A stretch of DNA of 64,000 nt from Edaphobacter sp. 4G125. GTDB lineage: Bacteria; Acidobacteriota; Terriglobia; Terriglobales; Acidobacteriaceae. The notes below the pieces were generated by a model that did not search any database, was not told where the DNA came from, and saw only the letters and a list, made by a program, of their open reading frames with translations. Below are positions 1,819 to 43,036 of the stretch, in pieces; positions within the stretch are counted from its first letter, which is position 1, and the number at the start of each line of letters is the position of its first letter. The translations under genes were made by a program, and so were the position numbers. The DNA lies in contig NZ_CP060393.1 in the NCBI RefSeq assembly GCF_014274685.1, positions 1,919,501-1,983,500 on the forward strand, given 5' to 3'.

Positions 1819-2134
1819 AGGTCTGAAAACCTCTCAGAGGTTGGGGAGTTTCGGGCACACCAATGACTGCTCATTGGCAAACTGCTATGGGGCAGAAATG
1901 TCTGGAACCCTGCGCTCAGAGGCTGGGGGGAAGGTGTTACATCCAGCACGCAAGGGAAGAAGCCGAAGATCGGCAACAGGCCCAGTATAAGTCACAAAAG
2001 ATCGCTCCATCCCAGTGTTTTTCTGGATTTTTCAAAAAAACCGGGCCTGCTCGGGCAAGTGTCTCATTTCACGTTCGGTCGAATTCGATACTATGGTCGA
2101 GTTTTCTATTCGTACTGAGAAGGAGTGATTAAAA
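1819..2134. other. divergent intergenic region between polyketide synthase and ridA-like gene
   Basis: About 316 bases between divergent genes. It must hold both promoters. I see no convincing small gene here; the open frames lack ribosome sites and conserved features. A GAGAAGGAGTG ribosome site for the downstream gene lies at about 2117-2127. Confidence 0.4.
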
Positions 2135-2596
2135 ATGGCATCATCGACACGCAGAGGTCTCTTGAAGAACGCAGCTGCAGCCGCAACGGGAGCCGTCATG
2201 GCCGCCCCTGTGGCATCGGCTCAAACGGCGGCGCGTACCGTCAAAAAAGACGCTACCGGAAAAACTCCAGGTCCTTTTCCGTTTACGCCTGTCGTCTCGT
2301 TTGGCAATCTCCTCTTCGTCTCCGGTGTCGGATGCCGGGTTCCCGGAACCATCGAGGAAAATACCAAATGGGTCCTTGATGAGATCGAAAAATATCTTAT
2401 TGCCTCTGGCTCATCGCTCGAGAAGGTACTGAAGGTCAATGTTTTTATGGAAGACATCAAAGACTTCGACCGCATGAACGCTGTGTACAAGACCCGTAAG
2501 TGGGGCACAGTCTTTCCGGCACGCAATACGGTTCAGCCTGCCAAACTTCCTGCGGGTGACTACGGCCTCGCGATCGACTGCGTTGCCTACGTGTGA
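2135..2596 (+). CDS. Tat-exported RidA (YjgF/YER057c/UK114) family protein
   Basis: 153 residues. The N-terminus (STRRGLLKNAAAAATGAV) is a twin-arginine-type signal, and the rest is a RidA domain (about residues 45-150) with the conserved PARNTVQPAKLP segment that carries the Arg which in RidA binds the carboxylate of imine/enamine substrates. RidA deaminates reactive 2-aminoacrylate-type intermediates in the cytoplasm, so an exported copy must work on something else in the periplasm; this is inference. A strong GGAG ribosome site precedes the ATG. It appears monocistronic. Confidence 0.85.
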   Translation: MASSTRRGLLKNAAAAATGAVMAAPVASAQTAARTVKKDATGKTPGPFPFTPVVSFGNLLFVSGVGCRVPGTIEENTKWVLDEIEKYLIASGSSLEKVLKVNVFMEDIKDFDRMNAVYKTRKWGTVFPARNTVQPAKLPAGDYGLAIDCVAYV

Positions 2597-2984
2597 GATC
2601 GAAGTCATTCACCTCAGCCTGTTTTTCTGTCTCAATACCTTTGTCATCCCAGCTGGGGGACAGAAATCCTGTCAAGCCAGGATCTCCTCTAACTCTCACG
2701 ATTCAGAGGAGATCTTGATTGCAGAATCTCTTCATCTATCTCGCTAAAATAGAAATAGGAAAAAAGATAAGTCAAGTAATAGAAATCGGAAAGATTAGAA
2801 GTCATATGTCCGGCTCATTTTGAGTCGGACGTGATCGTTTAACGCGGTAGAGAAGACGCAGGTACACACTTATCTTATTTATTTCGAATACTTTGTCTCA
2901 TTTGTAGGGAGGGGAGGGGTTGTTTGTTGTCCAACCGACACCCAGTCAACTGAAACGCCTCGAGGCTGCTATCCTTTCCCTCAC
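2597..2984. other. intergenic region with a 10-bp inverted repeat
   Basis: No gene seen. A perfect 10-bp inverted repeat (GATCTCCTCT at 2681-2690, AGAGGAGATC at 2705-2714, 14-base loop) could be a hairpin ending the upstream transcript, but no T-run follows. The last 100 bases should contain the promoter of the transporter gene. No clear ribosome site precedes the ATG at 2985. Confidence 0.4.
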
Positions 2985-4238
2985 ATGGCCTCCACAACCA
3001 AATCCAGGGTGACCGGTGCAGTTGCCGGAGCGACGACAGCGCTTGTGCTTCTCACCGCGCTCAACTTCGTCAACTACATCGACCGGTACATCCTTCCAGG
3101 CGTGCAGGAGCAGATCAAGCACGAGTTCCTTCTCTCTGACGAGCAGATCGGAAGCCTCACCCTCTGGTTCATGCTCGCTTACATGCTCACCTCGCCCATT
3201 ACGGGATGGCTCGGAGACCGTTTTCCGCGAAAACCGATGATCGTCGTCGCGGCCCTCTTCTGGAGTGCGATCAACTTCTTCACCGCGTCGGTGAACTCTT
3301 ACGAATCACTGAATCTGCGCCATGCAGCGCTCGGTATCGGCGAGGCCAGCTTCGGAATCTTCGCTCCAGCGCTGCTTGCGGACTTCTACCCACCTGAGCA
3401 GCGCAACCGCGTGATGACGATCTTCAACATCGCGATTCCCGTCGGAGCCGCCCTTGGATATCTCGTCGGCGGAGTCGTCGGGGAGCACCACGGCTGGCGC
3501 ATGTCATTCATCGTCTCTGCCATTCCCGGAGTGATTTTGGCCCTGCTCATCCTCTTTCTGATGAAGGAGCCGGAGCGCGGAGCCAGTCAGCACGAGAAGG
3601 CAAAGTTTGAGAAGGGAACCGTTCTAAATCTTCTGAAGAACAAGGCGTACCTTGCCTCGATCCTTGGGTATGCCGCCGTTACGTTTTCATTGGGTGGAAT
3701 CTCGTGGTGGATGCCGTCCTTTCTCGAGCGCGTTGGAGGGCGTTCGCAGGCCAGCGCAGCTTTTCTGATGGGAGCGATCACTGTGGTGACAGGCCTGCTT
3801 GGAACCATCACCGGAGGAGTTATTGCGCAGCGCTGGTCGAAGAAGACTCCGAAGGCTCTCTACTTAGTGCCCGCCATGAGTGCGGCGCTTGCGGTCCCAC
3901 CGGCCCTGGTCTGCTTCTTCGGTCCGAAAAACCTGACGATCCCTGCGCTCGCTCTCGCGATCTTCCTCATTTTTCTCGGGACCGGTCCTGTAAACGCTGC
4001 GACCGTCAATGCGGTTCGTCCGGAGGTCCGAGCGACGGCAATGGCTGGACAGCTCTTTATCATCCATGCGCTTGGCGATGCCATCTCACCGCGCGTAATC
4101 GGAGCTGTCAGCGACCGATCGAACCTTAGTTTTGGATTGGGCTCGACTTTGATTACGCTTGTTCTGGCTGCGATCATCTTCTTTTTCGGCTCGCGTTACG
4201 CTCCACCGCTGGGCGAAGAGGAACCTGTTGCAGCATGA
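2985..4238 (+). CDS. MFS transporter, spinster-like
   Basis: 417 residues with about 12 hydrophobic segments. The first helix carries NFVNYIDRYILPG, typical of the spinster-type major facilitator branch, and MFS motif A (GWLGDRFPRKP, residues 74-84) lies between helices 2 and 3. Substrate unknown; family members move lipids, sugars or aromatic acids. The stop overlaps the start of the glycosyltransferase gene by four bases (ATGA), so the two are translationally coupled and probably act together, perhaps on a glycolipid; that link is inference. Confidence 0.85.
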   Translation: MASTTKSRVTGAVAGATTALVLLTALNFVNYIDRYILPGVQEQIKHEFLLSDEQIGSLTLWFMLAYMLTSPITGWLGDRFPRKPMIVVAALFWSAINFFTASVNSYESLNLRHAALGIGEASFGIFAPALLADFYPPEQRNRVMTIFNIAIPVGAALGYLVGGVVGEHHGWRMSFIVSAIPGVILALLILFLMKEPERGASQHEKAKFEKGTVLNLLKNKAYLASILGYAAVTFSLGGISWWMPSFLERVGGRSQASAAFLMGAITVVTGLLGTITGGVIAQRWSKKTPKALYLVPAMSAALAVPPALVCFFGPKNLTIPALALAIFLIFLGTGPVNAATVNAVRPEVRATAMAGQLFIIHALGDAISPRVIGAVSDRSNLSFGLGSTLITLVLAAIIFFFGSRYAPPLGEEEPVAA

Positions 4239-5413
4239 TTGCACTACTCATCATCGCCTGGCTTGTGACCCTGGCCTGGCTCTGGAAGGCAGCAACGGCA
4301 GTATGCGGGTTGCCACACATTCCTAACCTGCTTGAACCAAAGTTCGATCGCGCTCCGGAAGGCAGTCCGTCAATCACGGTTATCGTTCCTGCACGAGACG
4401 AAGCTGCCGCATTACCTTTGTGTCTTTCATCGTTGCTCGCACAGGATTACAAGAACCTGAGGATTATTGCTGTGGACGATCGCTCAACCGATGGGACGGG
4501 AGCGATCATGGATGCTCTCGCGGTTCATCATCCAGAGCGTCTGCGTGTGCTGCATGTAAAGCAGCTTTCCGCAGGATGGCTAGGCAAACCACATGCGATG
4601 GCTTTGGCTGCAAGGGATGCGATTGTGATGGAGCGTCCTGATTACCTGCTTTTCACCGATGCAGATGTAATCTTTCAATCCGAAGCGATTCGCCGTTCAC
4701 TCGCGCAGGCCGTCGCGACGCAAGCGGATCACTTCGTCACGTTTCCAACGCCATTGGTCAAGACCTTTGGCGAAGGCGTGCTGCTCGGTTATCTGGGGGT
4801 GATGGGATTGTGGGTGACGCGGCCATGGAAGGCCGCCGATCCCAAAGCGAAGCGCGACTTTATTGGTATTGGTGCCTTCAATCTGCTGCGAACTGAAGCG
4901 TATGAAAAGCTGGGTGGATTCGAGGCGCTACGGATGGAGATACTGGAAGATCTTGTGCTCGCGCGCAAGGTCAAGCTTGCTGGGCTGCACCAACAAGTCG
5001 CGACGGCGCCAGGCATGGTGAGCCTACACTGGGCAGCGGGAACGATGGGTGTGGTGAAGGGAATGACCAAAAATCTCTTCGCCATCTTCCGTTTCCGAAT
5101 CGAAGTCGTTGTGTTTGCCTGTATCGCCTTGGCGGTCCTTTGCCTTGGGCCGATCGGTTTTCTCTTTCCAGCGCAAACGAAGTTTCCAGCGGAGATCGCG
5201 TTGGCTTCCATAGCGGCACTGTATATTGTTTCGGCGCGTCACTCGAAAATCTCGCCCTGGTACGCGCTGTTGTTTCCAGCGGGAGCTGCGTTGTTTCTGT
5301 ACTCGCTGCTTCGCTCGTCGTGGATTACGGTACGCGAGGGTGGAGTGACGTGGCGAGGCACGTTTTATCCGCTGGTAGAGCTTCGCCGCGGGCTGGTCTC
5401 CCTTCGCGAGTAA
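4235..5413 (+). CDS. family 2 glycosyltransferase, HpnB-like
   Basis: 392 residues. A short N-terminal membrane segment (1-20) is followed by a GT-A domain with VIVPARDEA (about 49-57), VDDRSTDGTG (80-89), the metal-binding DxD as TDAD (141-144) and an acidic EDLVLARKVK stretch. Several C-terminal helices come last. Length and arrangement fit the hopanoid-associated HpnB group and related membrane glycosyltransferases; no other hopanoid gene is visible here, so the HpnB name is only a resemblance. It shares an ATGA overlap with the MFS gene and ends 9 bases from the convergent ispG. Confidence 0.85.
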   Translation: MIALLIIAWLVTLAWLWKAATAVCGLPHIPNLLEPKFDRAPEGSPSITVIVPARDEAAALPLCLSSLLAQDYKNLRIIAVDDRSTDGTGAIMDALAVHHPERLRVLHVKQLSAGWLGKPHAMALAARDAIVMERPDYLLFTDADVIFQSEAIRRSLAQAVATQADHFVTFPTPLVKTFGEGVLLGYLGVMGLWVTRPWKAADPKAKRDFIGIGAFNLLRTEAYEKLGGFEALRMEILEDLVLARKVKLAGLHQQVATAPGMVSLHWAAGTMGVVKGMTKNLFAIFRFRIEVVVFACIALAVLCLGPIGFLFPAQTKFPAEIALASIAALYIVSARHSKISPWYALLFPAGAALFLYSLLRSSWITVREGGVTWRGTFYPLVELRRGLVSLRE

Positions 5414-5422
5414 GGAATTCGA

Positions 5423-6655
5423 TCAGGCTTCGACGAGAACTTTGCCGTAACGCTTCTCAACGTATCCGTCGAGGATCTGCTGGAACTCTTCGACGATGTG
5501 GTCGCCCTTGAGCGTGGTGTAGAGCTTGCCGTCTACGTAGACGGGGGCCTTCGGCTCCTCGAAGGTTCCCGGCAGAGAGATACCGATGTTGGCATGCTTG
5601 GATTCGCCGGGGCCGTTGACGATGCAACCCATGACTGCAAGCTTCAGCTCTTCGACGCCAGGATACTGCTTCTTCCATTCAGGCATTTGCTCAGCCAAGT
5701 ATCCTTGGATGCGCTCGGCGAGCTCTTGGAAGTAAGTTGATGTAGTGCGCCCGCACCCAGGGCAGCTGGTGACCTGGGGCATGAAGCTGCGGATGCTCAG
5801 GGACTGAAGAATCTGTTGTCCGCAGCGAACCTCTTCGGAACGGTCGCCACCTGGGGTCGGCGTGAGCGAGACTCGGATGGTGTCACCGATGCCACTGAGG
5901 AGCAGGGGAGCGAGACCAGCAGCGGAGGCAACGATACCTTTCATGCCCATGCCAGCTTCGGTAAGCCCGAGGTGCAGAGCATAGTCGCAGCGTCGTGCAA
6001 GCTCAGTGTAAACATCGATCAGGTCACGCACGCCGGAGACCTTGGCTGAGAGAACGATTTGATCGCGGCGCAGGCCGTAACGTTCGGCAGCGGCGGCGTT
6101 GTCGAGCGCGGAGACAACCATTGCCTCCATCATGACATCACGCGCAGGCAGTGGATCGGACGATTTGGAGTTCTCGTCCATCATCTTGGTGAGCAGCGCC
6201 TGGTCGAGCGAACCCCAGTTGACGCCGATGCGCACAGGCTTCTGATGTTTGACGGCGACCTCAACCATCGTGCGGAAGTTATCGTCGTCTTTGCGTCCGA
6301 TAGAGACGTTTCCAGGATTGATGCGATATTTCGAGAGGGCCTTTGCAGTGTCAGGGTATTTGGTGAGTAGAAGGTGACCGTTGTAGTGAAAGTCTCCGAT
6401 GATGGGAGTGTTCCAGCCCTTCTTCTGAATACCTTCAACGATGTAGGGAACAGCCTTTGCGGCATTGTCGTTGTTGACCGTGATACGGACCATCTCAGAA
6501 CCGGCGCGTGCCAGAGCTGCAATCTGCTGAACGGTGCTTTCGACATCCGCTGTGTCGGTGTTGGTCATGGACTGCACTACGACCGGCGCATCGGAACCTA
6601 CACGAACTCCACCAATATTGACCGTAACCGCACGACGACGCTGTATCTCGGGCAT
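5423..6655 (-). CDS. ispG: 4-hydroxy-3-methylbut-2-enyl diphosphate synthase
   Basis: The penultimate enzyme of the non-mevalonate isoprenoid pathway, reducing MEcPP to HMBPP with a [4Fe-4S] cluster. The three cluster cysteines are present in SCPGCGR and GCIVNGPGE in the C-terminal third, and the N-terminal TIM-barrel part has [10 protein letters not shown] place the start at 6655 ([16 protein letters not shown]), giving 410 residues, because a GGGTGGAG ribosome site lies just upstream; an in-frame ATG at 6709 would add 18 unconserved residues. It appears monocistronic. Confidence 0.96.
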
Positions 6656-6719
6656 AAACTCTCCACCCTTAAGTTTATCACTCAGCAACGAAATACCCTC
6701 GCGATACACTAAGCTGTAA

Positions 6720-6796
6720 GGCCCGGTAGCTCAGTTGCATAGAGCAGCGCACTCCTAACGCGAAGGTCGCAGGTTGGACTCCTGCCCGGGCCACCA
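6720..6796 (+). tRNA. tRNA-Arg (anticodon CCT)
   Basis: A 77-base cloverleaf with encoded CCA: acceptor stem GGCCCGG/CCGGGCC, D stem GCTC/GAGC, T stem GCAGG/CCTGC, variable loop AGGTC, anticodon CCT at 6754-6756 in loop CTCCTAA. It departs from the usual tRNA: base 19 is C (6738) and base 56 is G (6776), where nearly all tRNAs have G19 and C56, so the tertiary pair seems swapped rather than lost. The anticodon stem has G27:A43 and A31:C39 mismatches and only three Watson-Crick pairs. It could be functional with a compensated change or a decaying copy. Confidence 0.85.
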
Positions 6797-7374
6797 TAAA
6801 CCCCTATAAACGTTGATGATTTATCGATACCCCGAAGTGAGGAGAGCGTGAGATTTGCCTTGTGCCGCTTTGTGTCATTTTGTCTTTCTTTTACATCGGG
6901 ACGTAGTGAAATAAACCTCACGGAGAGGGTTAGGGATTGTCGTTTTGTACGTTTAAGGCAGCTGTTCGTTTCATCGACGAGCGGTTACCCTCTTGGGCAG
7001 GGCGCTCTAGATCGACGTGGTGGATCAGAACCCGCCCATAGAGAGACGGAGAGCCTTTAGACGGCCCTCCGCGATCAGATAGCCAAAGCGACCTGGCACT
7101 TATCGAGGACAGGTATGTGGCCTCCCTTCGGAGTAAAGGAGGCGAGCCGTTGTGCTTATGCTCCCGAATCCGTTACAGACCGTTGCGTCTCGGTTGATGT
7201 GTGCGCGACCAAAACATTGATGATTTGCGCCGAGCGATGTAGGTAGTCTCATGTCCACGGAAACCCGTTAGCCCAAAAGCTCTATGGTTCGCATGGTTTC
7301 CGTGATCCAATCGACCTAGCTGCTCGACCTTGCCATAGTACTTTGGGGAGGATGCGCCTATCGCTCAATTGGTT
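6797..7374. other. gene-free region downstream of the tRNA, with 10-bp direct repeats
   Basis: 578 bases with no supported gene. At 6861, 6871 and 6881 three direct repeats of TGTG/TGTC follow each other with a 10-base period, reminiscent of arm-type sites of tyrosine integrases, which often use tRNA genes. No integrase gene or second copy of the tRNA end is visible in the window, so an integration scar is only a possibility. A GGCCTCC/GGAGGC inverted repeat lies near 7119-7145. Confidence 0.3.
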
Positions 7375-8274
7375 TTAAATAGATTCAGTCTGTTGTCGAA
7401 ACCAGGCCACGATTGAACCGCGCAAAGCCGCTTTCTCAAAGTGAGAGGATATTTTTAGAAGATTTGTCAGATGATCTTTGCCGGAGAGGACAGATGGTAG
7501 GAATGTTTCCGAACTCCGAGAAATGGAGCCGCCTAAAACGATGATATCGGGTGCGAGGGGCAAGAGATAGACTTCGATCACGCGGCCAAGCTCGTCTCCA
7601 AATGCCGACATGATTTCAGATGCAATCGGATCGGTGAAAGAGTTCTTTGTGATCTCTTTCACTGATTGATATTTCCCCCCGCGGTCTTCCTGCAGTTTCA
7701 TGATTCCTCGAGTAGAGACAAAATCTTCGACCGTGCGATCTCTCCACGGGAGGGCATAAAGATCATTGGGGAGAACATCCGTTACGGAAACCGGTCGGCC
7801 ATCAATTGCAAACGCGGCGCCAATTCCCGTCCCTAAGGTAATTCCAATGGCCCTCGCCGCGAAGGGTTCTTGTAATTCGCCAAGAAGAAACGCATCAGCA
7901 TCGTTGAGAAATATGATTTTTGTTCCGTCGAGTCCGAACTGATCGGCGAGACATTTACGAATGTTTAAGCCATACCAGGCTGAGAATTTATGTTGCAGCC
8001 GCGAGACTCCTCCGGGATAGTCGAATGGTCCAGGAATCGCGACCGCGATTCCTGCAATGTTCCCAGACAAGGTTAAAGCAGAGAGAGCCATGCGACCGGC
8101 CTCAGCGGCCCGATCCAGCAGATATGTAGCCGAACCTCCCTCATCTAGAGCAAGAGACGCGCTGGATCTACTCAGTGGATTGCTTATGTCCACAGCCATG
8201 GCGGCGACGTGACTGCCTCCCATGTCGAAGCTTAAAAGAACCTTGTCATTGGTTGATATTGTCGGGGAGGACAT
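7375..8274 (-). CDS. ROK-family sugar kinase
   Basis: 299 residues of the ROK (repressor, ORF, kinase) fold without the helix-turn-helix of the repressor members, so probably a cytoplasmic sugar kinase. The N-terminal phosphate loop is FDMGGSHV (residues 16-23), the catalytic Asp125 is in LNDADAF, and the second phosphate motif is GITLGTGIG (144-152). The Cys-rich zinc motif of many ROK kinases is not apparent. The gene lies 45 bases downstream of the isomerase-like gene on the same strand and is probably co-transcribed, pointing to sugar phosphorylation coupled to isomerisation. Sugar specificity is unknown. Confidence 0.85.
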   Translation of the reverse strand: MSSPTISTNDKVLLSFDMGGSHVAAMAVDISNPLSRSSASLALDEGGSATYLLDRAAEAGRMALSALTLSGNIAGIAVAIPGPFDYPGGVSRLQHKFSAWYGLNIRKCLADQFGLDGTKIIFLNDADAFLLGELQEPFAARAIGITLGTGIGAAFAIDGRPVSVTDVLPNDLYALPWRDRTVEDFVSTRGIMKLQEDRGGKYQSVKEITKNSFTDPIASEIMSAFGDELGRVIEVYLLPLAPDIIVLGGSISRSSETFLPSVLSGKDHLTNLLKISSHFEKAALRGSIVAWFRQQTESI

Positions 8275-33579: not shown

Positions 33580-35160
33580 CTACCTTCTCACCCGGAGCAG
33601 TACCACTCCGTGACGCGGTACTGAAGATGCAAAATGATTGCCAGTTGCGCTGACGTCTTCGTGCTTCCAAAGGTCGTGGATATGCAGTTTCTTCCCCGTA
33701 AAGGAAGGGTCGATACTCGCCAGGTTGATTGTTTCGGGAACCGCCTGTTCTCCACGATTGAAGATGCCAACAATGATGGAGCCATCGCCCATCTTTCTTG
33801 TAAGAACTTCAATGTTTCCATCCTTAGAGAATTCTTCCGTCGGCAACGCGGCGGAATCCTGATCAATTGCAATGACCTCTGCATTCATCAGAATGGACTT
33901 CGTTTCATCTGACATATTGCGCAGGTCGTTACCAGCGATCAGGGGAGCTGAAAGCATCGACCAAAGACTCATATGGGTTCTATATTCATCGGCATTCATT
34001 CCCCCATTACCGATCTCAAGCATATCCGGATCGTTCCAGTGACCAGACCGAGTGTAGGAAGCGATAGCAAGTTGCGAAAAACCTATTCTATCCATTGACT
34101 CCCAAGTGTCGCGTATGTCCCCTGTTGTTCTCCATAAGTTGCCTCCGGTCTTCGCGCCCCACTTCCAGGGAGCGTTTTCGCCATATTGGCAGAGACTGAA
34201 AACGATGGGGTGTTTCGTGGATTGAAGCGCAACCCCCATCTTCTGGTAGAGACCACGATGATTCTGTTCTGAGGAAGGATAGATATTGCGTGCGCTACAT
34301 AAGTCATATTTAAGGTAGTCGATTCCCCAAGCCGCATATGTCTTTGCATCCTGCGCCTCATGACCGAAGCTGCCGGTATAGCCAGCACAGGTCTTGGGTC
34401 CAGGTGAAGAATAGATGCCGAGCTTGAGACCTTTGGAGTGAACATAGTCAGCGAGTGCCTTCATGTCAGGGAACTTTGTGTTGGTGAGGATGTTGCCATC
34501 TTTGTCGCGCCCTGCTTCCCAGGTGTCGTCGATGTTGATGTAGATGTAGCCAAGCTTGTTCATGCCGCTGCTGACCATGGCATCGGCCATCTCGCGAACG
34601 TCTTTGTCGGTGATCTTACCCGCGAATTTATTCCAACTGTTCCATCCCATCGGTGGTGTGCGGACCAGGCCGTTATCAGGGACATCAATGAGATGAGGGA
34701 GAGGCAAGGGAGCCGGGGGCATGGCAGCTTCGTGCGTCGTGCGTTCAGCATCGCCAGTCATTGCCTGTCCACGGAACCCGATGGACGTAAGGGTGATTTT
34801 CCCGTCATGGAAAGTGCCATCATAAACAACAGGACGACGGGCAAAACCTCCAGGAGAGCCTGCCGGAACTGGTGGCGGTACGGTAGCAATATGCACCGTG
34901 GTGCCTTTGATGCTTCCTTCTATCGGGATTCCGTCCGGGGCGCGACCAAGCCATTTACCGGTGAGTGTCTCACCGTGCTGTTCCAACTGGAAGAAGATTT
35001 CGCGATAGGTTCCATCTCCATTGGGAGCACGCAGATTCCAGTAGCCGGTCAGGTCACCTTGTGCAAATGCAGGCAGACTGAACGCTATGAGTGCAATAGC
35101 GTTCAGGCGCAATAAAGTAAACCGTTTAGAAACCATTTTGCAAGTATTTGAAACCTGCAT
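33580..35160 (-). CDS. alpha-galactosidase, GH27
   Basis: 526 residues with a signal peptide (LLRLNAIALIAFSLPAFAQ). A beta domain of about 110 residues (GDLTGYWNLR onward) precedes the GH27 barrel: MGWNSWNKFAGKI, YINIDDTWEA, the nucleophile in DYLKYDLC and the acid/base in WNDPDMLEIG. A C-terminal beta-sandwich follows. It hydrolyses terminal alpha-galactosides in the periplasm or outside. The start at 35160 is chosen for an AAGGAGAGG ribosome site; an in-frame ATG at 35196 is less likely. The LacI gene follows closely. Confidence 0.94.
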   Translation of the reverse strand: MQVSNTCKMVSKRFTLLRLNAIALIAFSLPAFAQGDLTGYWNLRAPNGDGTYREIFFQLEQHGETLTGKWLGRAPDGIPIEGSIKGTTVHIATVPPPVPAGSPGGFARRPVVYDGTFHDGKITLTSIGFRGQAMTGDAERTTHEAAMPPAPLPLPHLIDVPDNGLVRTPPMGWNSWNKFAGKITDKDVREMADAMVSSGMNKLGYIYINIDDTWEAGRDKDGNILTNTKFPDMKALADYVHSKGLKLGIYSSPGPKTCAGYTGSFGHEAQDAKTYAAWGIDYLKYDLCSARNIYPSSEQNHRGLYQKMGVALQSTKHPIVFSLCQYGENAPWKWGAKTGGNLWRTTGDIRDTWESMDRIGFSQLAIASYTRSGHWNDPDMLEIGNGGMNADEYRTHMSLWSMLSAPLIAGNDLRNMSDETKSILMNAEVIAIDQDSAALPTEEFSKDGNIEVLTRKMGDGSIIVGIFNRGEQAVPETINLASIDPSFTGKKLHIHDLWKHEDVSATGNHFASSVPRHGVVLLRVRR

Positions 35161-35515
35161 GAGATATCCCTCTCCTTGTAGGAAACGATGGCGCACCCCT
35201 GATTTTCAGGGAGTATCTTCGCGAGCAATGTAACCGATTTCATGTGATTTGTGCAAGACATGTCCACGAAATCGTGAAGTATCGGGTAGGGGGAATTATC
35301 CTCAAAATAAATCATTGCAGTGGAGGGAACTACGACGGATCGTATGCTTACTCTCGTCAAGCTTTCGGTTTCCTTCTGGATGCGAAAGCACGGCTTCCAA
35401 ACCATTCTGGATGATGAGGTATTTAGCGTGTTAGAGATTCTGATTTTTTAGTCCGGAGTGGTGATATTCGGCTAAAGCTTGCAAAATCTCCTGCAGATGC
35501 GGTTCAATCGAGTTA
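35161..35515. other. divergent intergenic region
   Basis: About 355 bases between the alpha-galactosidase gene (minus) and the first small Cys/His protein (plus). No gene supported. It must contain promoters for both. No AGCGCT palindrome is found, unlike the fucose locus. Confidence 0.3.
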
Positions 35516-35905
35516 TTGCGAAAGCTTCTCTCCATTTTGTTGCTGGTTGCCTTCAGTTTTCTAGTTGCTGCGCCGCTTTTCGCCGGAACAGCAGAGAGAG
35601 AAGCTCGTCTTCCTGCATGCTGCCGTAAAAACGGAAAGCACCATTGCATGATGGGGGCGGAAAGCGGTCAGCAGCTTGCGCACGCAGGGCCGTATCTTAC
35701 GGCCCCCGTTGAAAAGTGCCCTTACTATCCAAAAGCTGTAAAGGCATTGCGCTCTTCTGACTTATATACGGTCACGACCGCGGAAGCAGTCTTTGCTTCG
35801 CTGGTAAGTCATCCTGCACGCAAAGCCCAAACGGATGCAAAATGTCGTATCTCGCGTGATCGCTCCCGACTAAAGCGCGGCCCCCCAACATCTTTCTTCT
35901 TGTAG
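35516..35905 (+). CDS. small exported Cys/His-rich protein (paralog A), possible metal-binding
   Basis: 129 residues from a TTG start at 35516. A signal peptide (KLLSILLLVAFSFLVAAPLFAG) is followed by LPACCRKNGKHHCMM, then EKCPYY, AVFASLVSHP and a basic C-terminus ISRDRSRLKRGPP. The Cys, His and Met pattern suggests a periplasmic metal site, as in copper-related small proteins. The paralog at 36135 keeps all four motifs. It is followed by that paralog, a TonB receptor and a PepSY membrane protein. No known family was recognised; DUF2946-type copper-locus proteins are the nearest analogy I can offer. Confidence 0.65.
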   Translation: MRKLLSILLLVAFSFLVAAPLFAGTAEREARLPACCRKNGKHHCMMGAESGQQLAHAGPYLTAPVEKCPYYPKAVKALRSSDLYTVTTAEAVFASLVSHPARKAQTDAKCRISRDRSRLKRGPPTSFFL

Positions 35906-36134
35906 ATCGCTCAGTTTTCCGCTGATTAATGCAGCGCGGAGGCTGACCGACTTTATTGCGCTCCATGGTCCCTTTGATGCAAGATCTGTAACTGTCAGAA
36001 GGCCTCTGCTCCTTAGGCAGCAGTTCTCTATCTCGGCGGTTTCTGTCTAGATCTTCCATCCGAAGGACGACAGTCATTGAGACGCGACTTGGACCTCAGA
36101 TGATGAATCACGCTTCTGTGAAACCAGATCCTAG

Positions 36135-36566
36135 ATGGAAGAGATGCGACGTATTGAGAAAAGCTTGAAGGAGAAGACATGGTGCGTAAGCATCATTATG
36201 CTTCTTGTTTTTTCCTTTTCGTTGCAGTTTCTATCACTGATATTTTCTCATCTTCCAGCCGAGGCATCGCTTCCAGCCTGTTGCCGAACGCACGGAAAGC
36301 ATCACTGTGTGATGAACAAGGATTTGTTCGCACCTAGCCAAGGTCCCCACTCCCCTGAAATTGTTCAAGTCCGAGAGAAGTGCCCTTTTTTCGCAACAAC
36401 TCTTGTGAGTTGGCATGGACACGAATTCAGATTGAATGTTGCGGATCTTATTTTTGCTGAGATCGTCTCGCATCCTGTTCTTCGGCCGCAAATAGCTGCG
36501 CTTCGTAGAATTTCATTTGACCGATCTCGTCAAAAACGTGGCCCTCCTTCGACATCTCTCCTTTAA
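36135..36566 (+). CDS. small exported Cys/His-rich protein (paralog B), possible metal-binding
   Basis: 143 residues. A hydrophobic N-terminal segment (VSIIMLLVFSFSLQFLSLIF) precedes LPACCRTHGKHHCVM, EKCPFF, LIFAEIVSHP and RISFDRSRQKRGPP. It is clearly related to the protein at 35516 over the mature part, though the middle differs. The conserved cysteines and histidines would suit copper or another soft metal; this is inference. It ends about 100 bases before a TonB receptor gene on the same strand. A short GCCGGAT/ATCCGGC hairpin (36580-36594) follows it. Confidence 0.65.
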   Translation: MEEMRRIEKSLKEKTWCVSIIMLLVFSFSLQFLSLIFSHLPAEASLPACCRTHGKHHCVMNKDLFAPSQGPHSPEIVQVREKCPFFATTLVSWHGHEFRLNVADLIFAEIVSHPVLRPQIAALRRISFDRSRQKRGPPSTSLL

Positions 36567-36669
36567 TTTTCTGAAAAGAGCCGGATGATCCGGCGCCTGT
36601 AGAGGCTTCCATGTTGTCTGTGCAAGACGAACAGAGGATCTCTGCCGAAATGTCTTTTGGAGAGGAACG

Positions 36670-39183
36670 ATGCGTTGCCATTGGAGAAGTATATTTTTTC
36701 GCTTATGTGTTTTCTTTACTTTATCCTTGAGCCTTTCGGCTCAGACTCCGCTAAGTGCGACGACTGCTGGACAGGTTATTGGCCCACAAGGAGCGGCCGT
36801 TGCAAACGCACAAATCGAGACCCGTCAACTTAATGGTTCATTTGTGGCTCGTCGGATATCGGATCAGGATGGCCGGTTTTCGATAGGTCAGTTGCCGGTA
36901 GGGCAGTATGAATTTCATGTTGAACACGCCGGATTCCGAGAGCTGATTCGGCAGGTCGAGGTCCATGCGGAAGACAGCCTGTTTTTGAGTTTCCCGCTCA
37001 CACTATTGTCGATTACAGAAAATGTCACGGTCAGTGCGCAACCTTCTCTGATAACAGAAACGCCACTCAGCCAGACTCGAGCTTCCATAAGCCGTGAAGA
37101 CTTCAAAGATTCTCCAGCGATAACAATTGCAGATGTACTGGGTTTGGCGCCGGGAGTCACCTTTGTTCAAGGCAATGGCCCTCGTGATGTTGCCATCTCT
37201 GTTCGCGGCTCAAGCACACGCCAGACATATGGCGTCCGTAATGTACAGGTCTTTGAAGATGGTTTTCCTGTGACTCAGCCGGATGGTCTGGCGAGGACAG
37301 ATCTTACGGATCCTCATGCGTACAGCGGTGTAGATGTGATTCAGGGACCGTCGTCAGCGCTTTATGGAAACTATGCGACAGGTGGAGCCATCAATTTCCA
37401 TACACGAAGTGGAAGTGAAATTCATGGACTGGAAGTAGGGGCGGACTTTGGAAGTTTCGGTTACTACAACGATTATCTGACCTATGGTGCTGGAAGCGAT
37501 CGGTATCAGATTGCTGCATTTGTAAGCAATGTCCGTGCAGATCAGGTAACGGTAAATAATCAATTCAATACGGTAACCGCGAATATCCTTGCTAATTTTG
37601 TGGCAACGCCGCATGATCGCATGACTTTCAAGTTCATAAACAATGATCTGAACACGAATCTCTCAATTCGACTCTCTCGGGCACAATATCAAATCAATCC
37701 ATATCAAATAGGCTGTGAGATCTATAGTTCTTCTTTTGCTGCAAATGGATGTGCCAGTGTCAGCGTTTATGTTAACGGCTATAACGGTGCTAAGAAATCA
37801 CTAGGAGCTGCGGAAGCTGGTTTGAATCGTCATGATCGTCGCACGATCGTCGGAGCTCGCTACGAGCGCGATCTTACGTCCAATACGACTTGGCAGACGC
37901 AATTTGTATGGGATAACCGCGACGCGAATCAACCAACCAGTTCCTCGGCATATCGTGGCACTCTTCCATCTTTTAATCTGGAAAGTGATGTTGTACGCCA
38001 TGGATCTTTGGCGAAGCGCCAAACGACTATCTATGCTGGCGGATTCTTCAACTATGAGAACATCAACTCTCAAAGCTCAAATCTAATGCCTGGGGGCGAC
38101 GCTACATTGGGTGGCGCAACTCAGACCGTCATCGGAACTCATCTCAACACCGGTTTCCGCGGACGCGCCGAGTTCGTTCTAGCGGAACGGTGGACTCTGG
38201 TTGCAGGATTTGGTGGCGAGTATACGCGTTTGAATGCGCTGGCGAATAACTTCACTTATCCGATTGCTGGAACACCTGTTATCTCACCCGTTTCGGCGAA
38301 TCGTACCTTCTTCAATGTTGCTCCTGAAGTGGGAGTACAGTTTCATCCTACCCATGCCTGGAGTATTCACGCTCGCTTGGGGACAGGCTATGGGACCCCT
38401 CAGGCAACACAACTATTCACGAATGCGCAAGGCCAGTTCGGGAACAATGTAACCCTCAAAACGCAACGAAACATCGGAATTGATGGCGGAGCTGAATGGT
38501 CGATTGGTTCTATGTTGCAGTTTTCGGGCGCGCTATTTTACGAGTGGTTCCACAATGAGCAGGTGACGCAATCGGCTGGAGTTAATCTACAAAGCTATAC
38601 CTTCAATGCGCCCGCTTCCACGCATCGTGGCGTGCAGGCAAGTATCGATCTACGCCCGCTTCCCCACGCTATTGCAGGGCTCAGATTGCGGGCTTCCTAT
38701 CTGTATGACAATCAGATCTACACCCGCTACACCGAACAGCTAACGACAGGTGATGTGAGTAATAGTTTCTCGCGTAATAATAAGCAAATTCCAGGTGTTC
38801 AGCCGCATTATCTCAATGCACGGATTATTTATGACCAGCCAGTAGGGAAGCTGCATGGTTTCGGAGCATATCTGGAGACAAGCTGGCGAGATAAATATGC
38901 TCTCGACAATGCCAATTTTCTTTATGCTTCTGGCTACACCCTTCTGAATCTAAGCACGCATTACGACATGCCTTCTGGACATGGAGCCCTATCGCGATTG
39001 AGATTCTTTTTCGATATCCAGAATCTTGCTGACAAAATCTATATCGCATCTGCCAGCAATATTACGAACACCTTGAATCCGGCGGGACAGCAGAACGGTG
39101 CAAGTGTATTGGCGACTTCGACAGGCTCGATCTATGCAGGTACGCCACGAGCTTCTTACGGCGGCGTACGAGTTCGTTTCTAA
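36670..39183 (+). CDS. TonB-dependent receptor, siderophore/metal type
   Basis: 837 residues, much shorter than the sugar-type receptors in this window. A signal peptide (ending SLSAQTP) precedes a carboxypeptidase-regulatory-like domain (about 30-110), a plug with SAQPSLITETPLSQT, ITIADVLGLAPGVT, VQVFEDGFPVTQPDG and VDVIQGPSSALYGNYATGG, and a barrel ending VRVRF. This plug is of the FecA/OprC type, used for ferric-siderophore, copper or heme import. The neighbours (Cys/His-rich proteins and a PepSY protein) support a metal role. A GGAGAGG ribosome site precedes the ATG. Confidence 0.88.
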   Translation: MRCHWRSIFFRLCVFFTLSLSLSAQTPLSATTAGQVIGPQGAAVANAQIETRQLNGSFVARRISDQDGRFSIGQLPVGQYEFHVEHAGFRELIRQVEVHAEDSLFLSFPLTLLSITENVTVSAQPSLITETPLSQTRASISREDFKDSPAITIADVLGLAPGVTFVQGNGPRDVAISVRGSSTRQTYGVRNVQVFEDGFPVTQPDGLARTDLTDPHAYSGVDVIQGPSSALYGNYATGGAINFHTRSGSEIHGLEVGADFGSFGYYNDYLTYGAGSDRYQIAAFVSNVRADQVTVNNQFNTVTANILANFVATPHDRMTFKFINNDLNTNLSIRLSRAQYQINPYQIGCEIYSSSFAANGCASVSVYVNGYNGAKKSLGAAEAGLNRHDRRTIVGARYERDLTSNTTWQTQFVWDNRDANQPTSSSAYRGTLPSFNLESDVVRHGSLAKRQTTIYAGGFFNYENINSQSSNLMPGGDATLGGATQTVIGTHLNTGFRGRAEFVLAERWTLVAGFGGEYTRLNALANNFTYPIAGTPVISPVSANRTFFNVAPEVGVQFHPTHAWSIHARLGTGYGTPQATQLFTNAQGQFGNNVTLKTQRNIGIDGGAEWSIGSMLQFSGALFYEWFHNEQVTQSAGVNLQSYTFNAPASTHRGVQASIDLRPLPHAIAGLRLRASYLYDNQIYTRYTEQLTTGDVSNSFSRNNKQIPGVQPHYLNARIIYDQPVGKLHGFGAYLETSWRDKYALDNANFLYASGYTLLNLSTHYDMPSGHGALSRLRFFFDIQNLADKIYIASASNITNTLNPAGQQNGASVLATSTGSIYAGTPRASYGGVRVRF

Positions 39184-39198
39184 CGTTATTCCAACTAG

Positions 39199-39229
39199 CT
39201 GGTGAGAACGACGGGTTTGTTCTCGCCAG
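39199..39229 (+). other. intra-operon hairpin abutting a ribosome-binding site
   Basis: Stem CTGGTGAGAAC / GTTCTCGCCAG (11 pairs, one G:T) with a 9-base loop, 15 bases after the receptor stop. Its right arm touches the AGAGGAG ribosome site of the next gene. There is no T-run, so it is more likely an mRNA-processing or translation-control element than a terminator. Confidence 0.5.
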
Positions 39230-39241
39230 AGGAGAATCGCA

Positions 39242-40651
39242 ATGAATGACACTTTGGAGACAGCAGCTGCGGACGAGCAGGCCCGTCGGGTCTATCGCGC
39301 GGTCTGGCGATGGCACTTCTATGCTGGAATCTTTTGCATTCCGCTGGTGATCTGGCTTTCCTGCACTGGTTCAATTTATCTCTTCAAACCGCAGATTGAA
39401 CGTTGGCTGGACAGGCCATACGATCACTTTGAAATTCATGGTTTACAGGCGACACCGGAGCAGATTGCAAATGTTGCTCTCCGCGCAGTGCCCCATTCCA
39501 GTCTTCACTACTATGAGCTGCCACCATCTGCAAATGCGGCGACGCGGGTGATTGTTGGTGTAGGTTCGCAAGAATTCCGTGTTTATATTCACCCACAGAC
39601 GCTTCAGATTCTGAAGATTATTGATGAAGATAAGCGCCCTATGCGGATTATTTTTCGATTACATGGCGAGCTCCTTGCTGGGGATTGGGGCTCGCGTGTA
39701 GTCGAGTTAGCTGCTTCGTGGGCGATTGTCCTCATCGTTAGTGGTCTGTATCTCTGGTGGCCGAGACAAGGCGAGAGATTAGCAGGAGTTTTCTGGATCC
39801 GGTTTAGAAGAGGGTCCAGGATCTTCTGGCGAGATCTGCACGCAGTTACTGGACTCTGGATCTCCGCTTTTGCGCTTTTTCTGCTTCTTACAGGATTGCC
39901 CTGGGCGAAAAGTTGGGGGACGTATTTCCAGCGAGTTCGCCAAATAACAGGTACAGCGGTCGCACTGCAAGACTGGACCATAGGCCGGTCCTCAGAATTA
40001 GCCGAGCGTGAAGGATTAAATAGAAACAGTGTTACGACAGATGCAATGGATCATTCCAATCATGTGGGCCATGCAATGTCACATTTGCCTTCGAATCTTT
40101 CGCTGGTAGGCATGAACCGGGTTGTTTCGGCTGCAACAGCCCTTCATCTTGCTTCACCAGTGCTAATTACCCCATCGGCGAAGGAAGGCGCTCCCTGGGT
40201 AGTTAAGTCAGATGCACAGAACCGTACATTGCGAACTATCATTCTGATGAATCCGAATACGGCTGCGATAGTGAATCGCCAGGACTTCAATCAACGTCAT
40301 ATTGTCGACCGCGTGCTCGGGGTCGGAATCGCGGCGCATGAAGGCCAACTCTTCGGACTTGCAAACCAACTTCTCGGCCTAATAACTGCAATGGGATTGG
40401 TAGCGCTTTCTCTGAGCGCTATTGTGTTGTGGTGGAGACGGCGCCATGTAGGGGTTCTAGGGGCGCCATTGCCAACAACAAAGCCGAGGTGGTCTATAGC
40501 TCTGGTAGCAGTTATTGTTGTGCTCGCCCTCTATCTTCCTGCTATGGCTGCCTCGCTTGTTACGGTGATCATGTTAGAGAAACTTCTTTTTTCCCGGGTT
40601 CCACAGGTAAGCCGTTGGCTCGGACTTTCGACCGCAACTCGTGATTTGTAA
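39242..40651 (+). CDS. PepSY-associated membrane protein (PiuB-like)
   Basis: 469 residues with about four to five helices. It starts with the PepSY_TM pattern VWRWHFYAGIFCIPLVIWLS, has PepSY-type segments in the large periplasmic parts and an FRLHGELLAGDWG motif. Relatives act in siderophore-iron reduction or release and in copper handling at the inner membrane. A Met/His-rich loop at residues 269-281 (MDHSNHVGHAMSH) looks like a copper-type metal site. It follows the TonB receptor by 58 bases with a GGAG ribosome site, so the two are probably one operon. Confidence 0.82.
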   Translation: MNDTLETAAADEQARRVYRAVWRWHFYAGIFCIPLVIWLSCTGSIYLFKPQIERWLDRPYDHFEIHGLQATPEQIANVALRAVPHSSLHYYELPPSANAATRVIVGVGSQEFRVYIHPQTLQILKIIDEDKRPMRIIFRLHGELLAGDWGSRVVELAASWAIVLIVSGLYLWWPRQGERLAGVFWIRFRRGSRIFWRDLHAVTGLWISAFALFLLLTGLPWAKSWGTYFQRVRQITGTAVALQDWTIGRSSELAEREGLNRNSVTTDAMDHSNHVGHAMSHLPSNLSLVGMNRVVSAATALHLASPVLITPSAKEGAPWVVKSDAQNRTLRTIILMNPNTAAIVNRQDFNQRHIVDRVLGVGIAAHEGQLFGLANQLLGLITAMGLVALSLSAIVLWWRRRHVGVLGAPLPTTKPRWSIALVAVIVVLALYLPAMAASLVTVIMLEKLLFSRVPQVSRWLGLSTATRDL

Positions 40652-40723: not shown

Positions 40724-43036
40724 ATGAAGAAGTTTTTTGGCTTTGTGCTTGTTGCAGCTTCAATGGCGTTTGCACAGACATCCGATCCGCTCAGGTTTGT
40801 TGATCCGATGATTGGTACTGGTCCGGAAGGGCATACATTTCCGGGTGCGACTGCGCCGTTTGGCATGGTCCAGCTCTCGCCTGATACGCAGATTCGCCCG
40901 TTTAAACAAAGCTACAAGTGGGCAGCTGGATATCGCTATGAAGACACGACAATTTTGGGTTTTTCGCACACACATTTTTCTGGAGCGGGACATAGCGATC
41001 TTGGCGATGTGCTTCTGACTCCGATCAGTGGCGACAGCGTTCCTCTTGAACCCGGAGATCCGGAGAAGCCCCATTCAGGCTACCGCTCCAGGTTTTCACA
41101 TGCAGAGGAACATGCCGAGGCCGGTTACTACAGCGTGTTTCTAAAAGATTCTGCCGTTCATGCAGAACTTACTGCCAGCGAGCGCGTCGGAGTTCATCGC
41201 TATACATTTGCTGGTGGCGCACAACGCCATGTTCTACTTGATCTTCGCAGCAGCATCTATAACTATCCCGGCAAGGTGCTGTGGTCGCGCATAAGAATCC
41301 GCAAAGACGGTACTGTAACCGGAATGCGCGAGACCCGCGGTTGGGCGCCGGGCCGGCAGTTGTATTTTGCAATCCGTTTTTCTACGGACATGATTGGGCA
41401 TGCGCTCTATAACAAAGAAGATCTGCCAGTCTATCGCGGCTTCAAAACGCCTGGAACATCACCTCAAGATACTCGGAGTATCGAAGGCCGGGGACTTGAG
41501 GCCGTATTTGACTTTGCGTCTTCCTCTGCTCCACTTATCGTGAAGGTTGCACTCTCCTCAGTAAGCGAGCAAAACGCAATTGAGAATATGGACGTGGAAG
41601 TACCCGGTTTTGACTTTGACCATGTACGAGCCACGACGCAACATATGTGGAGAGAGCAGTTGGCACATGTTGAATTTCAGGCTTCAATCCCAATGCAAAG
41701 GTCGCTTTACACGGCGTTTTACCACGCCCTTATGGCTCCAAGCATAAGCATGGATGTGAATGGAGAATACAGGGGACCTGACAATCAGGTACATCGCGCC
41801 GTAGGTTTTCGCTTTGTCTCGACCCTTTCTTTGTGGGATACCTACCGTGCAGAACAGCCGCTCATGACTCTCATCGAGCCGGAACAACGGACGAACGATC
41901 TGGTTCAATCGATGCTTTCCTCTGCAGAGGAAAGCCCATTCGGAATTCTTCCGGTATGGCAGTTTCAAGGGCAGGAAACCTGGTGCATGATCGGATATCA
42001 TGCTGTTCCGATGATTGCTGATGCGTATATGAAGGGAATCCGTGGTTACGATGCCCAGAAGGCTCTCGATACGATGATTGCTAGCGCAACCTATGCACCC
42101 TACGGCAATCTCGGACAGTATATGAAGCTTGGTTATGTCCCGGTCGACCATGATGACGAAGCAGTTTCCAAGACTGTGGAATACGCTTTTGATGACTGGA
42201 CGATCTCACGCATGGCTGCAGCAATGAATAAGACTACAGTAGCTGCGACTTTTAGGAAGCGTTCTGCATTTTGGCGAAACAACTTTAATACAGCAGATGG
42301 ATTTACTGAGCCTCGGCTCGAAAATGGAAACTATCGCAAGCCTTTCGATCCGGCTAAGGCAGGGGCAGGTAGTGGTTTTACTGAAGGTAATGCGTGGCAA
42401 TACTCGTGGTACCAGCCACACGATGAGCAGGGACTGATCGATCTACTGGGAGGTCGCGACAACTTGATCGCCAGACTCGATGAGATGTTCGATCAGAAAG
42501 TCGATCCTGCCATGTATGCCAACGTTGAAGACATCTCAGGGATGATCGGTCAGTATATTCATGGCAATGAGCCTAGCCATCATCTTGCGTATCTCTACAT
42601 GTATGCGGGCGCGCCATTGAAGACGCAGGTGCGGCTGAAACAAATTGTAGATTCGCAATATAAACCTGCCCCTGATGGCCTAGTTGGCAATGACGATCTT
42701 GGGCAGATGTCGGCATGGCTCATCTTTACTTCGTTAGGTTTTTATCCGGTAGCGCCCGGATCCAACGAGTATGTTTTGGGGAGGCCATTTGTCAATCGTG
42801 CACGAATTCACCTGCCGAATGGGAAGCTGCTGACTATTGACAGTGTGGATATGATTGAAGGTCACGATTTTCTGAAAGATGTTTCGCTCAATGGTAAATC
42901 CCTGGATCGCAGCTTTGTGACTCACGAGGAACTTATGAACGGCGGCGAGCTCAAGTTCACTTTTAGTAGCGAGAAAGAAGCAAAATGGTCTCATGGCACT
43001 TTGCGCGTGCCATATTCCGAAACATCTCCTCATTGA
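40724..43036 (+). CDS. GH92 alpha-mannosidase
   Basis: 770 residues with a signal peptide (MKKFFGFVLVAASMAFAQ). The N-terminal beta-sandwich holds VDPMIGTGPEGHTFPGATAPFGM and GFSHTHFSGAG. The (alpha/alpha)6 part has the GH92 segments VDHDDEAVSKTVEYAFDDW, EGNAWQYSWYQPHDEQGL and NDDLGQMSAW, which carry calcium ligands and catalytic acids in characterised members. It trims alpha-mannose from glycans outside the cytoplasm. A likely terminator follows. The gene is monocistronic and not obviously tied to the metal module upstream. Confidence 0.95.
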   Translation: MKKFFGFVLVAASMAFAQTSDPLRFVDPMIGTGPEGHTFPGATAPFGMVQLSPDTQIRPFKQSYKWAAGYRYEDTTILGFSHTHFSGAGHSDLGDVLLTPISGDSVPLEPGDPEKPHSGYRSRFSHAEEHAEAGYYSVFLKDSAVHAELTASERVGVHRYTFAGGAQRHVLLDLRSSIYNYPGKVLWSRIRIRKDGTVTGMRETRGWAPGRQLYFAIRFSTDMIGHALYNKEDLPVYRGFKTPGTSPQDTRSIEGRGLEAVFDFASSSAPLIVKVALSSVSEQNAIENMDVEVPGFDFDHVRATTQHMWREQLAHVEFQASIPMQRSLYTAFYHALMAPSISMDVNGEYRGPDNQVHRAVGFRFVSTLSLWDTYRAEQPLMTLIEPEQRTNDLVQSMLSSAEESPFGILPVWQFQGQETWCMIGYHAVPMIADAYMKGIRGYDAQKALDTMIASATYAPYGNLGQYMKLGYVPVDHDDEAVSKTVEYAFDDWTISRMAAAMNKTTVAATFRKRSAFWRNNFNTADGFTEPRLENGNYRKPFDPAKAGAGSGFTEGNAWQYSWYQPHDEQGLIDLLGGRDNLIARLDEMFDQKVDPAMYANVEDISGMIGQYIHGNEPSHHLAYLYMYAGAPLKTQVRLKQIVDSQYKPAPDGLVGNDDLGQMSAWLIFTSLGFYPVAPGSNEYVLGRPFVNRARIHLPNGKLLTIDSVDMIEGHDFLKDVSLNGKSLDRSFVTHEELMNGGELKFTFSSEKEAKWSHGTLRVPYSETSPH

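What the first reader, a model, noticed from the sequence alone, without database searches (positions are those of the whole stretch)
35516..40651. Candidate undescribed metal-acquisition module: twin Cys/His small proteins, TonB receptor, PepSY protein
Two adjacent paralogous exported proteins share LPACCR-x2-GKHHC-x-M, EKCP[YF], a [LI]VSHP motif and DRSR-x-KRGPP. They are followed by a FecA/OprC-type TonB receptor and a PepSY membrane protein whose loop reads M-x-H-x2-H-x2-H-x-M-x-H (residues 269-281). Cys, His and Met ligands in three of four genes point to copper or another soft metal, or a metallophore-bound form. The small proteins match no family I recognise. Seen: motifs and order. Inferred: metal role.
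Basis: partly seen in the sequence, partly recalled or inferred. Interest (0 to 1): 0.78.

Follow-up and report, generated by a model that had tools for sequence, protein, structure and literature searches.

The report
Tandem copper-sensing ribosome-stalling leader peptides
The two small proteins look less like metal carriers than like built-in switches that stall the ribosome and sense copper while being made, controlling a copper-uptake operon; the principle is known from whooping-cough bacteria, and what is new here is a divergent, doubled version in Acidobacteriota.

Summary
All sequence claims hold. The small proteins are best explained as copper-responsive arrest peptides (upstream ORFs) of the CruR type, heading an operon laid out like Bordetella cruR-crtA-crpH. 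In 75 homologous ORFs at 66 loci, R[GA]PP ends 1-11 residues before the C-terminus in all (against 1 of 2,819 other ORFs), and CP lies 49-54 residues before it in 72. A TonB receptor follows at 62 loci, PepSY at 2, CusF-SCO1 at 1. Ten of 51 members match DUF2946 (CruR's family), at least one over Pfam's cut-off; the two window proteins do not. Unlike CruR, CXXC is usually lost (CPYY, CPFF here), CC-x5-H-x-C is nearly invariant, and the leader is doubled at 8 loci. Small RGPP ORFs without detectable kinship precede related receptors on Acetobacter and Gluconobacter plasmids. Copper is strongly suggested, not shown. How the stall acts on the receptor gene is open: my RNA tests do not support Shine-Dalgarno masking and only weakly support Rho. 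New variant of a known kind.

The parts
35516..35905 (+). first leader peptide (arrest-peptide-like uORF 1), 129 aa, TTG start
   Evidence: start fits homologs that begin M-R-[RK]-L
35618..35647 (+). CC-x5-H-x-C site of uORF 1 (CCRKNGKHHC)
   Evidence: pattern in 73 of 75 family ORFs
35717..35722 (+). CP of EKCPYY in uORF 1, 53 residues before the R of RGPP
35876..35887 (+). RGPP arrest motif of uORF 1, 5 residues before the C-terminus
35906..36134 (+). 229-nt spacer between the two leader peptides
   Evidence: folding z-score -1.61
36135..36566 (+). second leader peptide (uORF 2), 143 aa; start at 36144 also possible
36279..36308 (+). CC-x5-H-x-C site of uORF 2 (CCRTHGKHHC)
36381..36386 (+). 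CP of EKCPFF in uORF 2, 52 residues before the R of RGPP
36537..36548 (+). RGPP arrest motif of uORF 2, 5 residues before the C-terminus
36567..36669 (+). 103-nt leader between uORF 2 and the receptor gene, with a 6-bp GC-rich hairpin at 36580-36594
   Evidence: across loci such spacers are no more structured than control spacers
36670..39183 (+). TonB-dependent receptor (837 aa), PqqU/YncD-like by sequence; proposed importer of a copper complex
39242..40651 (+). PepSY_TM protein (469 aa); H25, H141, H200, H366 conserved in the 6 proteins compared (window included); His/Met-rich loop 269-281; proposed copper reductase like CrpH
   Evidence: function by analogy with PMC13038864

Best explanation
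35516-40651 is a copper-import operon headed by two tandem CruR-like arrest peptides. Each small ORF starts with a hydrophobic export-signal-like segment. When copper is scarce, its C-terminal RGPP stalls the ribosome a few codons before the stop, and the stall lets the receptor (36670-39183) and PepSY genes (39242-40651) be expressed, most likely by blocking Rho-dependent termination as in Bordetella. When copper is present, it binds the nascent chain at CC-x5-H-x-C, helped by the CP about 52 residues before RGPP (from the general size of the exit tunnel, recalled as 30-40 residues, both should be outside it at the moment of the stall). Folding then pulls the chain, frees the ribosome and shuts the import genes off. 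The receptor would import a copper chelate and the PepSY_TM protein would reduce or hand on copper in the periplasm. Two leaders in series would give a tighter switch, since both would have to stall. Shown by sequence: ORFs, motifs, conservation, spacing, neighbourhood, remote kinship to DUF2946. Inferred: stalling, copper as ligand, direction of regulation, Rho, and the roles of the receptor and PepSY proteins.
For: (1) R[GA]PP within the last 15 residues: 75 of 76 profile hits against 1 of 2,819 other mechanical ORFs of at least 100 aa in the same loci, and 0 of 1,095 of at least 200 aa; the 76th hit (L163) lacks the other features too and was dropped. RGPP 66, RAPP 9. RGPP/RAPP arrest and its use in secretory uORFs before TonB-receptor and PepSY genes are published (PMC12992588, passages, section 13). 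CruR likewise needs a near-fixed sensor-to-RAPP spacing. (3) 10 of 51 members match DUF2946 at E<=0.01; at least one passes the cut-off (27.3 against 23.7 bits). (4) 62 of 66 loci have a TonB receptor directly downstream, 2 the PepSY gene, 1 CusF-SCO1, 1 CcmH then FeoB; apart from L069 (62%) the other 36 receptors aligned are 18-23% identical to the window's, so the leader is the constant part. (5) Copper links: SCO1/CusF-type genes at 6 of 66 loci; His/Met-rich PepSY loop in all 6 proteins compared; SCO or PCu(A)C genes beside plasmid relatives. (6) The same gene order is published as cruR-crtA-crpH. (7) Close PepSY relatives (E<=1e-60) occur in 2 of 60 family genomes, and both lie in a run headed by a leader gene.
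Against: The two window proteins do not match DUF2946 and lack the second Cys of CXXC that CruR needs. No call returned an experiment on any member. Homologs were found by similarity to the window protein, its C-terminus included, and come mostly from one bacterial family, so the conservation counts are neither independent nor free of that choice. The C>G excess (0.166 against 0.005) is largely explained by amino-acid content (observed 0.164, expected 0.141 in 74 ORFs; paired p 0.03; against 504 control genes p 0.015) and is reversed in uORF 2 of the window (z -1.77; uORF 1 +0.20), so the Rho step has little support here. A 24.5%-identical plasmid relative of the common receptor type lies beside zinc genes, one leader (L042) precedes CcmH and FeoB genes, and one PepSY relative (Methylocystis plasmid) stands behind a two-component system with no receptor or leader annotated directly before it, so neither copper nor the full set holds everywhere.
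Confidence: 0.65

Rival explanations
1. CutF-like logic: copper increases stalling and the stall opens an mRNA hairpin that hides the ribosome-binding site of the receptor gene.
For: CutF proteins also have signal peptide, metal motif and a C-terminal proline motif (PMC9973294: abstract, sections 10-12); the receptor's ribosome-binding site is predicted to be paired in the window (z -2.32).
Against: Spacers of 40-250 nt after leaders are not more structured than control spacers (mean z -0.89 for 55 against -1.12 for 120 of 141, p 0.87). The motif is RGPP as in CruR-type peptides, DUF2946 is the CruR family, and the downstream genes look like import genes, which should go down with copper.
Confidence: 0.1
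2. The small proteins are periplasmic metal chaperones or carriers that work in trans with the receptor and the PepSY protein.
For: Nearly invariant Cys/His ligands and a hydrophobic N-terminus; co-occurrence with the receptor.
Against: It explains neither the R[GA]PP 1-11 residues from the end in 75 of 75 nor the tight CP-to-RGPP spacing. The model has low confidence over residues 41-100 (pLDDT 59-63). The chain varies outside the motifs.
Confidence: 0.08
3. Arrest peptides that sense something other than copper (zinc, iron, redox state or secretion itself).
For: No ligand shown; FeoB near one leader; zinc genes next to a distant receptor relative; published RAPP/RGPP peptides also monitor protein localization (listing, passages).
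Against: SCO1/CusF neighbours at 6 of 66 loci, gene order shared with a copper-linked operon type, and no secretion gene as the first downstream gene at the 66 loci.
Confidence: 0.15

Closest known systems
CruR (DUF2946, PF11162), Bordetella pertussis bp2923; PMC9426467 (abstract, passages and section 7 seen)
   Same: Small export-signal ORF heading a TonB receptor - PepSY_TM operon; Cys metal motif; C-terminal RAPP/RGPP; near-fixed motif spacing; remote profile match of some family members.
   Different: Window members fail the DUF2946 model; CXXC is CPYY/CPFF; a nearly invariant CC-x5-H-x-C lies 33-34 residues upstream of CP; two leaders in tandem.
CrtA (BfrG) copper TonB transporter; PMC12914433 (abstract, passages, sections 4 and 7 seen)
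   Same: Second gene of the operon, TonB receptor, followed by PepSY_TM.
   Different: By sequence the window receptor is nearest YncD/PqqU among solved structures; CrtA subfamily membership not testable here because no CrtA sequence was at hand.
CrpH PepSY_TM protein; PMC13038864 (abstract, passages, sections 20 and 21 seen)
   Same: PepSY_TM third gene; conserved His residues in the membrane regions.
   Different: His/Met-rich loop 269-281, present in some form in the 6 proteins compared here; whether CrpH has it was not tested.
CutF and CutF-like proteins; PMC9973294 (abstract and sections 10-12 seen)
   Same: Nascent exported copper sensors upstream of copper genes, Pro motif at the C-terminus.
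   Different: Opposite response to copper and a hairpin-based mechanism; no structural excess in the spacers here.
RAPP/RGPP small secretory uORFs before TonB receptors; PMC12992588 (passages and section 13 seen)
   Same: General class that this family falls into.
   Different: That survey is generic; the text I saw does not describe this Cys/His family, the tandem arrangement or the change of receptors behind one leader.

Membership tests
CruR / DUF2946 | Match to PF11162 above Pfam's cut-off | tested here: not met
   Window proteins: no match at E<=1. Relatives: 10 of 51 at E<=0.01, at least one over the cut-off.
CruR / DUF2946 | C-terminal RAPP-type arrest motif | tested here: met
   RGPP 5 residues from the end in both; 75 of 75 kept family ORFs have R[GA]PP, 1-11 residues from the end.
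CruR / DUF2946 | CXXC copper-sensing motif | tested here: not met
   CPYY and CPFF in the window; CPxC in 10 of 72 ORFs with CP.
CruR / DUF2946 | Nearly fixed spacing between the Cys motif and the RAPP motif | tested here: met
   CP-to-R 52 or 53 in 60 of 72, range 49-54; CruR has 45 residues between CXXC and RAPP, here about 48 counted the same way.
CruR / DUF2946 | First gene of an operon with TonB receptor and/or PepSY_TM | tested here: met
   64 of 66 loci have one directly downstream; co-transcription itself not tested.
CruR / DUF2946 | Export signal at the N-terminus | tested here: inconclusive
   Long N-terminal hydrophobic helix in alignment and model; no signal-peptide predictor was run.
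CruR / DUF2946 | Copper-relieved stalling and Rho-dependent termination | not testable with these tools
   Only indirect: C>G excess, mostly explained by amino acids.
CrtA copper transporter | Conserved binding site including an essential His in strand 8 | tested here: inconclusive
   No CrtA sequence at hand; the PDB sequence search at E<=1e-5 did not return CrtA.
OprC (TIGR01778) | Match to the TonB-copper model | tested here: not met
   Window receptor: not among its matches (E<=1, E<=1e-5); 2 of 38 receptors downstream of leaders match.
CrpH / PepSY_TM | PepSY_TM domain | tested here: met
   PF03929, E 9e-67.
CrpH / PepSY_TM | Invariant His at the heme positions of FoxB/CrpH; CrpH sequence cluster | tested here: inconclusive
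   H25, H141, H200, H366 conserved in 6 of 6 proteins compared, but not aligned with FoxB or CrpH; cluster membership not tested.
CutF-like | Stem-loop masking the downstream start | tested here: inconclusive
   Local pairing in the window, no excess across loci.

The most novel reading that the evidence does not exclude
Two arrest peptides in series act as a two-input gate on one operon: each nascent chain senses a different state (for example different copper affinities, or copper and redox) through a relocated CC-x5-H-x-C site, and the receptor is made only if both ribosomes stall. The leader is an exchangeable sensor cassette that has been fitted to several very different receptor types.
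Probability: 0.25. Interest if true: 0.72.

Novelty: new variant of a known kind. Interest (0 to 1): 0.5.

Why it matters
It gives a protein family of Acidobacteriota that the Pfam and NCBIfam libraries largely leave unlabelled a concrete and testable function, and suggests that co-translational copper sensing extends to a sensor site different from the published one. The tandem leaders, the change of receptors behind a constant leader, and RGPP leaders without detectable kinship in front of related receptors in Alphaproteobacteria would make arrest-peptide control of metal import a repeatedly recruited device. That bears directly on how a nascent chain reads a metal ion.

Tried and rejected
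Direct family searches of the window proteins: nothing useful (the weak BRANT hit, E 0.37, covers only residues 3-36, a hydrophobic N-terminal stretch). PDB profile search of the small proteins: no match at E<=1; PepSY protein: no match at E<=0.01. Rfam on 35100-36800: one sub-threshold microRNA match (29 against 65 bits, E 0.0006), judged chance. Promoter scan: 1 found against 1.4 expected; terminator-like sites: 4 found against 1.5 expected (one on the minus strand), none judged convincing. Spacer structure as a conserved element: rejected, no excess. C>G bubble: first looked strong, then mostly explained by amino acids. Tree of 75 leaders: first and second copies of tandem pairs do not form two clean groups; few columns, so whether tandem pairs arose once or several times is open. 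Own-genome search for more members: three convincing (a fourth at E 0.39 with a stop inside, only). Small protein 1 against plasmids: no match. Plasmid leaders of Acetobacter/Gluconobacter against Pfam: nothing above chance (Novosphingobium's was not scanned). My first gene calling missed receptors that run off contigs or overlap other frames; corrected by tblastn.

Rows dropped: L036 (same protein as L067), L077 (replaced by the overlapping stretch L164), L163 (spurious hit without RGPP). Rows not fetched with flanks: G085 and G008; G008 and G050.
Full report
OBSERVATION. Neither small protein matches Pfam or NCBIfam usefully.

FAMILY. Searching with small protein 2 found matches in 36 of 100 genomes of the same bacterial family at E<=1e-3 and 8 named contigs (Granulicella, Acidobacterium and other Acidobacteriota). 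With a 51-row profile, 28 of 297 genomes of the phylum matched: 15 of the same genus (own included), 10 others of the same family, 1 of the same class, 2 elsewhere in the phylum, of which one (G185, L163) is spurious. The own genome holds a third copy at C1:3274496-3274873, directly before another TonB receptor. After dropping duplicates and the spurious hit I worked with 75 ORFs at 66 loci, the window included.

THE MISSED HALLMARK. All 75 end with R[GA]PP (66 RGPP, 9 RAPP) with 1-11 residues after it. Among 2,819 other mechanical ORFs of at least 100 aa in the same loci, 1 has R[GA]PP in its last 15 residues; among 1,095 of at least 200 aa, none. CC-x5-H-x-C is in 73 of 75. So indels are tolerated between CC and CP, but hardly between CP and RGPP, as expected if a sensor must stand at a set distance from the stall point. 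Roy et al. report the same kind of constraint for CruR (CXXC to RAPP, 45 residues; PMC9426467). The homologs were found by similarity to the window protein, so these counts are not free of that choice.

KINSHIP. Ten of 51 members match DUF2946 at E<=0.01, and the G031 member (L164) passes Pfam's cut-off over nearly the full model (27.3 against 23.7 bits); how many others pass it was not listed. The window proteins do not match. I therefore call the family CruR-like, remotely kin to DUF2946, and do not file the window proteins as DUF2946 members.

NEIGHBOURHOOD. A TonB receptor lies directly downstream on the same strand at 62 of 66 loci, the PepSY gene at 2 (L059, L164), a CusF-SCO1 fusion at 1 (L045), and CcmH followed by FeoB at 1 (L042). 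A PepSY gene follows the receptor at the window, L069, L145 and L150. SCO1-type genes lie within 3.2 kb downstream at 6 loci (L045, L046, L047, L051, L054, L060). Receptors are of very different types: of 37 aligned with the window's, L069's is 62% identical and the rest 18-23%; 2 of 38 match the TonB-copper model. Close PepSY relatives (E<=1e-60) occur in 2 of 60 family genomes, the own one and G031, both in a run headed by a leader gene. The His/Met-rich loop is present, with varying letters, in all 6 PepSY proteins compared (window included), and H25, H141, H200, H366 are conserved in all 6; that these are the heme ligands is by analogy, not by alignment with FoxB or CrpH.

TANDEM LEADERS. 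Two leaders in a row occur at 8 of 66 loci (window, L034, L064, L145, L146, L147, L149, L150), spaced 36-229 nt, with RGPP in both copies each time. The tree is too poorly resolved to say whether they arose once.

OUTSIDE THE PHYLUM. In the two Acetobacter plasmid records opened, a receptor (50% identical in the one compared, L165) is followed by a PepSY gene (41-43%), with SCO genes nearby. A small hypothetical ORF stands directly before the receptor; the same is so in Gluconobacter (receptor 46%), where a transposase and no PepSY gene follows. These small ORFs have no Pfam family and score below zero bits against the window family's profile; they are kin to each other (41%) and carry RGPP 14-16 residues and QGPP 1-3 residues before the end. 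In Novosphingobium sp. THN1 an ORF ending RGPPALA precedes a receptor and a PepSY gene (44.9%); that receptor is only distantly like the window's (29% over 119 residues), the record is unannotated, and the ORF's kinship to the Acetobacter leaders is marginal (E 0.001). In Pseudoalteromonas a receptor-PepSY pair lies near PCu(A)C and SCO genes but has no leader ORF of at least 60 aa before it, and the 54-residue annotated ORF upstream has no RGPP. In Methylocystis parvus a PepSY relative stands behind a two-component system without receptor or leader. This suggests, but does not prove, that RGPP leaders were recruited more than once.

KNOWN SYSTEM. cruR-crtA-crpH of Bordetella pertussis has the same order. 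Published there: copper binding to the CXXC of nascent CruR relieves a RAPP arrest, followed by Rho-dependent termination (PMC9426467); CruR's arrest was confirmed in vitro (PMC12992588); CrtA imports chelated copper (PMC12914433); CrpH supports heme-copper oxidases and may be a copper reductase (PMC13038864). 'Acidobacter' does not occur in the main text of PMC9426467, PMC12914433, PMC13038864 or PMC10987492 and occurs once, in a figure legend, in PMC12992588. That paper says TonB-related RAPP/RGPP uORFs are found universally in Gram-negative bacteria, so the general idea covers this phylum already. A search for Acidobacteri + arrest peptide + copper returned only that paper. Supplements were not seen.

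MECHANISM TESTS HERE. Spacers after leaders fold no better than control spacers (55 against 120 of 141; p 0.87), which gives no support for masking of the receptor's start, although in the window itself that site is predicted to be paired. The last part of leader ORFs is rich in C over G (0.166 against 0.005), a sign used for Rho sites, but amino-acid content explains most of it (expected 0.141, observed 0.164; p 0.03 paired, 0.015 against 504 control genes), and leader 2 of the window goes the other way. The link from stall to downstream expression is thus borrowed from CruR, not shown. The AlphaFold2 model has a long N-terminal helix and an uncertain middle (mean pLDDT 71, pTM 0.34), in line with the description of CruR as poorly structured.

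VERDICT. A CruR-like, doubled copper-sensing arrest-peptide leader in front of a receptor-PepSY operon; new variant of a known kind. Likelihood of arrest-peptide function about 0.9, of copper as the cue about 0.75, of CruR-like direction (copper off) about 0.75: my estimates, not computed.

Noticed in passing
   Followed up: partly
L165:3325-3714, L166:3376-3765, L170:3344-3736, L169:2060-2500: Small ORFs with RGPP (and QGPP near the end in the first three), without detectable kinship to the window family, directly precede TonB receptors on Acetobacter, Gluconobacter and Novosphingobium plasmids; possible separate arrest-peptide leaders.
   Followed up: partly
   Followed up: no
window 40724-43036 and 33580-35196: The operon is flanked by a GH92 glycoside hydrolase (same strand, 72 nt after PepSY) and, on the other strand, an alpha-galactosidase (Melibiase_2); neither looks metal-related.
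   Followed up: partly
   Followed up: no
L171 (Paraburkholderia sprentiae plasmid) 1-8060: A distant (24.5%) relative of the common leader-associated receptor type sits among zinc-uptake genes (ZigA, zinc ABC binding protein, Fur-family regulator, ExbB/ExbD/TonB).
   Followed up: no
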